Of a stretch of 33,619 bases of DNA, positions 30,946 through 33,619 are shown one piece after another. Both the position numbers and the translations under genes were made by a program. The stretch is from the NCBI GenBank assembly GCA_015492495.1, contig WGEY01000051.1, forward strand, positions 1 through 33,619. Reading direction: 5' to 3'. This DNA comes from Deltaproteobacteria bacterium. Its GTDB lineage: Bacteria > Desulfobacterota > GWC2-55-46 > DRQE01. The notes beneath the pieces are model-generated. The model did no database searches. It had not been told where the DNA came from and was given only the letters and a program-made list of their open reading frames with translations. Positions within the stretch are counted from its first letter, which is position 1; every line of letters starts with the position of its first letter.

Positions 30946-31210
30946 CAACGCGCAGTTTAGGAAAGATCTGGGAAACTTCCCGAGTGGTCATTGCCTGCAT
31001 GGCGAGGCGATCCTTCTTCCATGAAGTTGAACGGTTAGGTGTTGCTTTATCTGATTCAACGCAGCCGCATCTACAGTGAGTTCGTCTTGTCGGAATAAGC
31101 GCAATGAGATCAAAATGTGATGTTTGGGAAGGTGCGGGTTATACTATGAATGCTTTTGCGGAACCAAAGTGGCCTCTTCCGTTCAAAGAATAAAGAGTGG
31201 GGAGGGTGTT
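30946..31210 (+). other. Gap between flaG and fliD
   Basis: 265 bp without a supported gene. A short inverted repeat GGGAA-AC-TTCCC lies at 30970-30981. A 26-codon open frame at 30999-31079 has no ribosome-binding site and no recognisable product. TATACT lies near 31141 but lacks a good -35 partner. No sigma-28 or correctly spaced sigma-54 element was found, so how fliD-fliS-fliT is transcribed is unclear. Confidence 0.6.
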
Positions 31211-32545
31211 ATGAGTGTTACGGCATCATCGGGGCTGATAAGCCAGATAGATTACCAGGCCCTTATAGAGCAGCTTGTTAGTGTAAAAAGGCAGCCGATA
31301 GACCAGTTGGCGTATGAAAAGGACCTGCTCGAGGATGCGGACTCGGCCTACGATACACTGAAGTCCAGGCTCTCCGATTTGAAGAGCGCAGCGGATGACC
31401 TGAGGAGCACCGCCGACTTCAAGGTGTTCACAACGAGCGTTACGGACGAGACCATCCTTGGAGCCTCGGCTACGAGCGATGCCTCTGCCGGGACGTATTC
31501 TATCACGGTAAACAATCTTGCACAGGCGCACAAGCTCTACGACGCCACTGGTGTGGCATCCGAGTCTACGGTTGTCGGCACCGTTGACGGTGGCTCACTT
31601 AAGTTCACAGTAAACGGCACGCAGTACTCGGTGTCGGTGGACTCCACCACCACGCTCTCCGAGCTCAGGGATGCGATAAACAACGCCCAATCCGCTGTTA
31701 CGGCCACCACGGTAAACGACGGTACGAACTACAAGTTGATATTGACATCCAACGCAACAGGGGCATCAAACAGCATAACAATAGACCAGAACGACACGTC
31801 CATCTCCTTTTCAACACTTCAGGCCGCCCAGGACGCCGAGGTGGTGGTAGACGGGCTGACCATTACACGTTCTTCCAACACCATCAGTGACATTATTACG
31901 GGTGTGACCCTGGACCTCAAGAGCGCCGACTCCACCAAGGAGGTCACGCTGACCGTAAACCGCGATACCGACGCCATAGAGGAGAAGATAGTGGCATTCG
32001 TGGATAAATATAATGCCGTTGTAAGCCACATACAGTCGAACAACAGGTATGACACCGACACCAAGACGGCCGGTCCCCTCTTCGGTGACGGCATTGCAAG
32101 GAGCGTCTGGGAGGACTTGAGAAGGCTCATGACGTCGGCCATAGACACTCTGCCGAGCACCATGAACCGGCTCATCCACGTAGGTATTACGAGTGACACC
32201 GAGGGCAAGATGTCTGTAGACAGCTCGGACCTTGTGGACGCGCTTACGAATAACTTCGACGACGTTGTAAACCTTTTTGTAGACGCGGCATCAACAGGGG
32301 GCACGACCGAGGGCTTTGCCGACAAGGTATACGACCTGGTGGACGACATGCTCGATATAGCCGACGGAAGGATCACATCGAAGCAGAAGTACCTCGGTGA
32401 CAGGATAGATTCGCTTACAAGGGATATCGACGAAAAAGAGAAGGATCTTCTCGATTATCAGGAGGCACTCAGACTGCAGTTTGCAGCTCTGGAGAGCCTG
32501 CTTTCCAGCCTCAGGGCGCAGAGCGATTACATGATGAACCTATAG
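31211..32545 (+). CDS. fliD: Flagellar filament cap protein FliD
   Basis: A 444-residue FliD (HAP2). The N-terminus has SSGLISQIDYQALIEQLV, and the coiled D0/D1 helix continues through LAYEKDLLEDADSAYDTLKS. The FliD_N beta domain holds DETILGASATSDASAGTYSI and VNNLAQAHKL. The C-terminal part has VAFVDKYNAVVSHIQ, LFGDGIARSV, IHVGITSDTEGKMSVDSSDL and the terminal helix ALRLQFAALESLLSSLRAQSDYM. GGAGGG lies before the ATG at 31211; an upstream in-frame start at 31124 lacks such support. It is followed 9 bp later by fliS. Confidence 0.94.
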   Translation: MSVTASSGLISQIDYQALIEQLVSVKRQPIDQLAYEKDLLEDADSAYDTLKSRLSDLKSAADDLRSTADFKVFTTSVTDETILGASATSDASAGTYSITVNNLAQAHKLYDATGVASESTVVGTVDGGSLKFTVNGTQYSVSVDSTTTLSELRDAINNAQSAVTATTVNDGTNYKLILTSNATGASNSITIDQNDTSISFSTLQAAQDAEVVVDGLTITRSSNTISDIITGVTLDLKSADSTKEVTLTVNRDTDAIEEKIVAFVDKYNAVVSHIQSNNRYDTDTKTAGPLFGDGIARSVWEDLRRLMTSAIDTLPSTMNRLIHVGITSDTEGKMSVDSSDLVDALTNNFDDVVNLFVDAASTGGTTEGFADKVYDLVDDMLDIADGRITSKQKYLGDRIDSLTRDIDEKEKDLLDYQEALRLQFAALESLLSSLRAQSDYMMNL

Positions 32546-32554
32546 GAGGAGGCG

Positions 32555-32986
32555 ATGAACAGCGTGTCGCAGTATCAAAAGGTGCAGGTGATGACGTCCG
32601 ACGGTGTGAGGCTTATCATAATGCTTTATGAAGGAATAATAAACTTCAACAACTGCGCCAAAAAGGCGATTGCCGAGAATGACATAGAGGGACGCAGCAA
32701 CTACCTTAACAGGTCGCTCGATATAATAACCGAGCTCACTAACGCACTGAACATGGACGAGGGCGGCCAGATAGCAGAGAACCTGAAGAGGTTGTATGAC
32801 TTTTCAGTATACGCCCTTACCAATGCAAACCGCACCAACGACCCGGGATCCATAGACGAGGTAAACAGGATATTCAGTGAATTGAAGGCCGGATGGGAGG
32901 GGATCGCCTCTTCTGAGAAGGGGCGGGGCGGTAACAAGGTGGCCTTGGAGACGAAACACAATGGGGTCGCGCAAAATGGACTGTAA
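32555..32986 (+). CDS. fliS: Flagellin export chaperone FliS
   Basis: A 143-residue helical chaperone that binds the flagellin C-terminus before export. The N-terminal YQKVQVMTSDGVRLIIMLYEGII segment is diagnostic, followed by helices with GRSNYLNRSLDIITELTNAL and LKRLYDFSVYALTNANRTND. Length is a little above the usual ~130 because of a polar C-terminal tail. GGAGGAGG lies just before the ATG. In FliW-CsrA systems FliS also influences flagellin availability. Confidence 0.93.
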   Translation: MNSVSQYQKVQVMTSDGVRLIIMLYEGIINFNNCAKKAIAENDIEGRSNYLNRSLDIITELTNALNMDEGGQIAENLKRLYDFSVYALTNANRTNDPGSIDEVNRIFSELKAGWEGIASSEKGRGGNKVALETKHNGVAQNGL

Positions 32987-33302
32987 GGGCGTTCTCGAGA
33001 AGATGCTCGAGATATCCACCGCGCAACTGCAACTTTTCGAGCAGAAGCGCTATGTAGAGCTGTTTAAAAATCAGGAAAGGAGAGACCGCCTTTTCGAGGC
33101 CCTTAAGGGTTTTGGTGTGGATATCATCAATGAAAACAACGAATTAAAGTGCATTGTTGATAGATTGGTTGAAAATGACAGGAGGCTCGGTGTCAAGGTA
33201 GAGTCCGAGCTCAAGGATATACGTACTCAGCTAAAAAAACTTACCGCAGGCACAAAGGCCGTCAAGGCCTATGCAGACAGTGGTGGTCGGCGTAAGCTCT
33301 GA
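32961..33302 (+). CDS. FliT-like flagellar chaperone
   Basis: A 113-residue, highly charged helical protein overlapping fliS by 26 bp. Gene order fliD-fliS-fliT and the helical pattern (EKMLEISTAQLQLFEQKRYVE..., then a second and third helix with DRLVENDRRLGVKVESELKD) suggest a FliT/FlgN-type chaperone, perhaps for FliD. Direct sequence similarity to FliT is weak, so the call rests on position and shape. The start is 32961 (GGAG 10 nt upstream) or 32976. Confidence 0.6.
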   Translation: MGSRKMDCKGVLEKMLEISTAQLQLFEQKRYVELFKNQERRDRLFEALKGFGVDIINENNELKCIVDRLVENDRRLGVKVESELKDIRTQLKKLTAGTKAVKAYADSGGRRKL

Positions 33303-33506
33303 ACCTTCACAGTCTCCGGTTTTTTCTCTTTTTCGGTCGGCGGATACCATGCGGCCTGCCGCCGGGACACCAAGTGCTCAGAGACGGACCGAAACCGAGC
33401 AAGGCGATGGGGCTGTCTCTGGGTAATCTCTGATCAACCCGTCGTTGAGAGGCGAGTTAGAGCTCCTACTCTACTGTTTTCAAGAGACTGGATTGATATT
33501 ATGAAG
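33303..33506 (+). other. Non-coding stretch after the flagellar genes
   Basis: No gene is seen. Two T-rich runs (GGTTTTTTC and CTTTTTC, 33319-33333) follow the FliT-like stop but have no good preceding hairpin. Weak inverted repeats are GGCGG (33339-33343)/CCGCC (33359-33363) and CAGAGAC (33379-33385)/GTCTCTG (33415-33421). TTGAT occurs at 33493-33497. Confidence 0.5.
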
Positions 33507-33608
33507 AAGCCACCTCCCGAGGGTTTACATTCCTGGTAGAATGTATCCCAAACAACTAAGGGTTTGCATTCCTGCTGAATGCATCCCAACATAACAAGGA
33601 GGTGGCTT
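33507..33608 (+). promoter_or_regulatory. Leader RNA whose closing stem covers the Shine-Dalgarno
   Basis: AAGCCACCTCC (33507-33517) is the exact reverse complement of GGAGGTGGCTT (33598-33608), which contains the Shine-Dalgarno and touches the ATG at 33609. The 11-bp stem would enclose the two hairpins at 33521-33587 as a three-way junction and block translation. It may be the repressing leader of an IS200-like transposase or a cis-regulatory RNA. Confidence 0.6.
33521..33587 (+). repeat. Two near-identical tandem hairpins with compensatory change
   Basis: Copy 1 (33521-33549): GGG-TT-TACATTC, loop of 6, GAATGTA-T-CCC. Copy 2 (33560-33587): GGG-TT-TGCATTC, loop of 5, GAATGCA-T-CCC. The start-to-start distance is 39 bp. 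The single arm difference (A to G) is matched by T to C in the opposite arm, so pairing is kept. Confidence 0.75.
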
Positions 33609-33619
33609 ATGAAGCAGTA
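33609..33619 (+). CDS. Start of an unidentified gene (cut by window end)
   Basis: ATG AAG CAG TA- follows GGAGGTGG immediately upstream, so a gene beginning M-K-Q probably starts here. Three codons do not identify it. The hairpin-rich leader that can hide the ribosome-binding site resembles that of IS200-type tnpA genes, whose products often begin with a short M-x-x-Y-like head; this is only a suggestion. Confidence 0.4.

What the first reader, a model, noticed from the sequence alone, without database searches (positions are those of the whole stretch)
33507..33608. Tandem covarying hairpins closed by a Shine-Dalgarno-sequestering stem
AAGCCACCTCC and GGAGGTGGCTT form a perfect 11-bp stem over the ribosome-binding site of the gene at 33609. 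Inside are two near-identical hairpins whose only arm difference is compensated (TA pair versus GC pair), indicating selection on structure. This could be an IS200/RAYT-like element end with translational repression, or a cis-regulatory RNA with duplicated arms.
Basis: partly seen in the sequence, partly recalled or inferred. Interest (0 to 1): 0.62.

Follow-up and report, generated by a model that had tools for sequence, protein, structure and literature searches.

The report
Transposase leader that hides its ribosome-binding site
The structure is the left end of a jumping gene, most likely of the IS110 family, whose messenger-RNA leader folds up and hides the ribosome-binding site so that little transposase is made; this kind of control was known, but the same design recurs in many relatives and looks like a shared lock.

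Summary
A perfect 11-bp stem (33507-33517 with 33598-33608) closes over the Shine-Dalgarno (SD) site at 33596-33603. It encloses two near-identical hairpins whose only arm difference is a compensated pair. None of 2000 shuffles folds as well.
The segment is the left end of a mobile element. It is 100% identical at two other contig ends. All three copies sit at the same point, GATTG^CTTCG, of REP-like palindromes, and an unoccupied allele of one site is assembled too. The gene begins MKQYIGVDFH, the N-terminal motif of IS110-family DEDD transposases. The rest of the gene is missing from the assembly, so the family rests on ten residues, target habit and leader type.
Opening the SD costs 13.8 kcal/mol here, against 0.3-8.0 for 28 host genes. 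Most IS110 relatives whose transposase starts G-x-D-x-H carry an equivalent stem (19 of 25 with z>2), with paired changes in one aligned subgroup. Most relatives without the His do not.
Best reading: a translational lock on transposase, as shown for ISPpu9. It is not an IS200/RAYT end and carries no visible bridge-RNA guide. New member of a known kind; the group-wide pattern is the interesting part.

The parts
33491..33495 (+). GATTG, target-derived half of the REP-like site left of the element (GAGATTG^CTTCG in empty sites); the true boundary could lie a few bases inside this shared stretch
   Evidence: three insertions share GATTG then diverge leftwards; empty sites read GAGATTGCTTCG
33496..33619 (+). 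left end of the mobile element up to the contig end; 100% identical at C54:21-149 (-) and, as far as base 33591, at C107:14806-14906 (+)
33497..33502 (+). TATTAT, candidate -10 with TG one base before it (extended -10); no -35 in the integrated state; would place the RNA 5' end near the base of the stem
   Evidence: sequence inspection; no full promoter found; inference
33507..33517 (+). 5' arm of closing stem, AAGCCACCTCC (anti-SD sequence)
33521..33549 (+). inner hairpin 1 (TA version)
33560..33587 (+). inner hairpin 2 (GC version), near-copy of hairpin 1
33596..33603 (+). Shine-Dalgarno AAGGAGGT; opening energy 13.8 kcal/mol
33598..33608 (+). 3' arm of closing stem, GGAGGTGGCTT, ends at the base before ATG
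33609..33619 (+). start of transposase ORF (ATGAAGCAGTA); the copy in C54 continues it as MKQYIGVDFH

Best explanation
This is the left end of a multi-copy insertion sequence, most likely of the IS110 family (DEDD transposase), inserted into REP-like palindromes. The roughly 118-nt leader of its transposase mRNA folds into a branched structure. An 11-bp stem pairs the SD and the bases up to the AUG with an anti-SD sequence near the element tip, and two short hairpins in between bring the arms together. Translation initiation is thereby kept low, on the element's own transcript and on transcripts reading in from the host. Shown here: the structure, identical copies, common target point, empty allele, extreme computed SD occlusion, and recurrence in related elements. 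Inferred: the family of the unread gene, repression in the cell, and how the lock is released. The guide RNA that picks the REP target is probably elsewhere in the element, for example downstream as in IS1111-type elements.
For: Three identical copies at contig ends with unrelated left flanks. Insertion point GATTG^CTTCG in REP-like repeats, with intact sites. An unoccupied version of the C107 site is at the right end of C17, with the same unique flank. ORF MKQYIGVDFH fits the first DEDD motif, as in relatives KYIGLDVH, YYIGLDIH, AYVGVDYH; two of these relatives, L258 and L268, were checked as PF01548/PF02371 proteins. SD opening 13.8 kcal/mol against 0.3-8.0 for 28 host ORF starts and 4.9 +/- 2.0 for shuffled leaders, 0/100. 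Of 25 relatives with the G-x-D-x-H start, 19 have SD occlusion with z>2, against 1 of 10 distinct leaders without it. Sequence-aligned leaders show 3 pairs changed on both sides, cells paired 92.9% versus 21-50% when slid. In ISPpu9, weakening such a leader raised expression 26-fold (PMC8450116).
Against: Only ten residues of the protein are available; the transposase is absent from the assembly and some short contigs are withheld. No relative of this exact leader was found in 395 genomes. Six of 25 G-x-D-x-H relatives and four of five plasmid or archaeal ones fail z>2, partly through uncertain starts or GC-rich leaders. No expression data.
Confidence: 0.8

Rival explanations
1. The leader is itself the bridge RNA (guide RNA) of an IS110-group element, the two hairpins being target- and donor-binding loops, and SD occlusion is a by-product.
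For: Bridge RNAs of the IS110 group lie in the left end and have two loops; position and two-hairpin form agree.
Against: The two hairpins are near-copies with 5-6 nt loops and no guide-sized internal loops. The longest match of the leader to the target is 6 nt, equal to the shuffled mean of 6.0. The leader is about 120 nt against a 191-bp left end in IS621. IS110 relatives without the His motif, whose leaders look conserved, mostly lack SD occlusion.
Confidence: 0.08
2. IS200/IS605 or RAYT-type end, with hairpins recognised as single-stranded DNA by a Y1 transposase.
For: Hairpins near an element end, REP-like sequences and two Y1_Tnp genes in the genome.
Against: The gene start is IS110-like, not Y1 or TnpB; the Y1 genes are on other contigs; the 11-bp stem ends exactly at the AUG; insertion is into REP-like repeats at one fixed point.
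Confidence: 0.03
3. A ligand- or temperature-sensing cis-regulatory RNA of a host gene.
For: SD-sequestering branched leader.
Against: Three identical copies at unrelated loci, no Rfam match, transposase-like ORF.
Confidence: 0.02
4. As in the best explanation (a refinement, not an alternative to it), but the lock is opened by an antisense RNA made within the element, as Asr9 does in ISPpu9, rather than acting as a fixed brake.
For: ISPpu9 precedent; the antisense strand of codons 3-5 reads TATACT, a possible -10.
Against: The -35 region would lie beyond the known sequence; no transcript data.
Confidence: 0.15

Closest known systems
ISPpu9 (IS110 family, Pseudomonas putida), tnp 5'-UTR and Asr9/Ssr9
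   Same: Element in REP sequences; leader fold buries the RBS; mutating it raised expression 26-fold (PMC8450116)
   Different: 244-nt leader and a demonstrated antisense activator; here a roughly 118-nt leader with a perfect 11-bp closing stem and duplicated hairpins, no antisense RNA shown
IS110-family relatives with G-x-D-x-H transposases (L249, L252, L256-L258, L265-L268, ISSso6)
   Same: Leader stem closing over SD, often to the AUG, around one or two hairpins
   Different: Stem and hairpin sequences unrelated to this one; several have conserved blocks downstream of the gene, unknown here
IS621 and its bridge RNA
   Same: REP target habit, structured left end
   Different: No guide match found in this leader
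IS10, IS50, IS200 protection against read-through transcription (recalled, not tested)
   Same: End-proximal inverted repeat masks the transposase RBS on incoming transcripts
   Different: Unrelated transposases

Membership tests
IS110-family insertion sequence | DEDD (RuvC-like) transposase, PF01548 plus PF02371 | tested here: inconclusive
   only MKQYIGVDFH readable; fits the first motif; PF01548 absent from the assembly
IS110-family insertion sequence | Site-specific insertion, often into REP-type repeats | tested here: met
   three insertions at GATTG^CTTCG of REP-like repeats; empty allele
IS110-family insertion sequence | No terminal inverted repeats, circular intermediate | not testable with these tools
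   right end not assembled
IS110-family insertion sequence | Guide (bridge/seek) RNA in one non-coding end | tested here: inconclusive
   not visible in the left end; right end unavailable
Bridge RNA in the left end (IS621 type) | Loops complementary to target, 8-14 nt | tested here: not met
   longest complement 6 nt, as in shuffles; discontinuous pairing was not tested
SD-sequestering transposase leader (ISPpu9 type) | 5'-UTR fold that buries the RBS | tested here: met
   opening energy 13.8 kcal/mol, 0/100 shuffles, by computation only
SD-sequestering transposase leader (ISPpu9 type) | Weakening the fold raises translation | not testable with these tools
   needs a reporter assay
IS200/IS605 or RAYT | Y1 transposase with terminal hairpins | tested here: not met
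   Y1 genes only on C68 and C9, away from this element; ORF start is IS110-like
Rfam families | Match to a covariance model | tested here: not met
   none at E<=5

The most novel reading that the evidence does not exclude
An SD-sequestering leader stem is an old, conserved translational lock of one large branch of the IS110 family (transposases starting G-x-D-x-H, with the guide RNA downstream), and is missing in the branch whose left end is used as guide RNA. The position of the guide RNA and the mode of transposase control would then be linked.
Probability: 0.45. Interest if true: 0.6.

Novelty: new member of a known kind. Interest (0 to 1): 0.42.

Why it matters
IS110-family recombinases are being developed as RNA-guided DNA insertion tools, and how cells keep them quiet is studied for very few. 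A leader stem that recurs across diverged elements with paired changes offers a simple, testable brake, and explains a feature that could be mistaken for a bridge RNA or a riboswitch. In this genome there is also direct evidence of recent movement: an occupied and an empty allele of the same site.

Tried and rejected
Exact and degenerate DNA patterns for the leader and gene start in 85,000 genomes and in viral contigs: no hit. BLAST with the leader in 196 relatives: two short matches, both chance hits at ordinary genes. Covariance model R1 over 395 genomes: only own copies, plus a chance hit in the ATP synthase operon. Reading 171 contig ends for the right end of the element: not found; six short contigs read N. 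Leader as bridge RNA: no guide-length match. A full sigma-70 promoter in the integrated state: none. Rfam: none.

Full report
Observation. The minimum-free-energy fold of the copy in contig C54 is that branched structure, z -3.7 with 0 of 200 shuffles as stable. For the 102-nt unit 0 of 2000 shuffles reach -43.5 kcal/mol, and an 11-bp stem into the last 25 nt occurs in 2 of 2000.

What it belongs to. The window is the end of contig C51 of a 2.26-Mb draft genome. Bases 33491-33619 recur at 100% identity at the end of C54, and as far as base 33591 at the end of C107, next to unrelated sequence. Repeats of this kind end contigs, and no contig shorter than 2.3 kb is held, so a 1-2 kb element would be lost. 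The C54 copy extends the ORF to MKQYIGVDFH. No PF01548 protein is in the assembly.

Target. C107 reads ...ACTAAAAACGAGATTG|ATATTATG.... Many intact repeats in the genome read ...ACTAAAAACGAGATTG|CTTCGCTGCGCTCGCAATGACG.... The right end of C17 carries the same flank as C107 without the insert, differing by a 3-nt indel upstream, so an occupied and an empty allele appear to coexist in the sampled population. C54 and C51 are inserted after GAGATTG and GGATTG. Fixed-point insertion in REP-type repeats is typical of IS110-family elements.

Occlusion of the SD. The free energy needed to open eight bases of the SD is 13.8 kcal/mol. It is 0.3-8.0 (median 4.1) for 28 ORF starts of the window, taken from the ORF list and not curated, and 4.9 +/- 2.0 for leaders shuffled upstream of the SD.

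Relatives. One IS110-family element in the same class, L024, had a high value (11.2), so its transposase was used to search 395 genomes of the phylum. Starts were chosen by SD match, without regard to folding. Of 25 relatives with the N-terminal motif G-x-D-x-H (loosely including ATDLH), 19 have z>2 against shuffles. Among ten relatives without the His (L013-L018, L020, L023, L030, L033) only L017 does. A rank test on opening energies, plasmid-borne elements included, gives p about 1e-4 between the two sets, but the sequences are not independent. Note that the starting element was picked because it scored high, which favours its own close relatives. Examples of stems ending at the AUG: GACCTGCC/GGCAGGTC (L249), GACCTACC/GGTAGGTC (L256, L258), GACCGGCC/GGCCGGTC (L257), GGCAAGTCTC/GAGACTTGCC (L244, L245). 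ISSso6 of Shigella has one too, 12.9 kcal/mol.

Covariation without circularity. Five leaders of one subgroup (L249, L253, L256, L258, L276) were aligned by sequence and the stem then counted. 92.9% of cells pair, against 21-50% when the partner is slid. Three pairs have changes on both sides, against 1.1 in shuffles (18 of 500 reach it). Five sequences are few, so this is support, not proof.

Guide RNA. In L249, L252 and L258 the region downstream of the gene contains shared blocks (AGGAGAAYCCTCG, GAGGCAGCTC; seen by eye), as expected if the guide RNA is downstream (IS1111-type arrangement). In the window's leader no stretch matches the target beyond 6 nt, the chance level. I therefore think the leader is a control region, and that the guide lies elsewhere.

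Mechanism. TATTAT at 33497-33502 sits at the element tip, preceded by TG from the target. In IS110-family circles the joined ends drive expression of the guide RNA. If the same junction promoter exists here, RNA would start close to 33507, the base of the stem; this is inference. Either this RNA or a host read-through RNA would contain both arms and fold into the lock. The experimental precedent is ISPpu9. Literature searches for an account of such leaders across IS110/IS1111 elements found none in the open library, which does not exclude one elsewhere.

Verdict. Real structure, ordinary kind of function, new member; interest lies in the recurrence across relatives.

Noticed in passing
own genome, contig ends C10, C17, C19, C21, C41-C43, C45, C47-C49, C56, C58, C83: Another multi-copy IS (end ...GATACATTACC) sits with a TTGACA-like -35 box starting 16-18 bases from its end in 10 of 15 flanks, i.e. 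it inserts just upstream of promoters; such specificity is described for Mutator-superfamily transposases (PMC3942029, found, not read).
   Followed up: partly
own genome, ends of C46, C90, C99, C22: Three further repeats at contig ends also have some copies shortly upstream of -35-like boxes, fewer and less regular.
   Followed up: partly
C17 right end (L195) versus C107 right end (L005): Occupied and empty alleles of one insertion site in one assembly, with a 3-nt indel nearby: strain variation in the sampled population.
   Followed up: yes
C98:1-150 (L053), also C54, C43, C91, C31: REP-like repeats of this genome come in composite forms; some carry an extra insert GAGATTG-GAGAAGGTATTAAAAGCTTCTCCCCGGCAAG at the same GATTG point that the IS uses, perhaps a small non-autonomous element or a second palindrome.
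   Followed up: no
L272, L274, L279 (IS5708-like, GIDLAKNVF): These elements keep a short stem AACGAAT/ATTCGTT ending at the ATG in all three, although the SD itself scores as only moderately occluded.
   Followed up: no
window 31124-33302: The insertion lies just downstream of what look like flagellar filament-cap and chaperone-type ORFs (31124-32545, 32555-32986, 32961-33302), judged by reading only; no family search was run.
   Followed up: no
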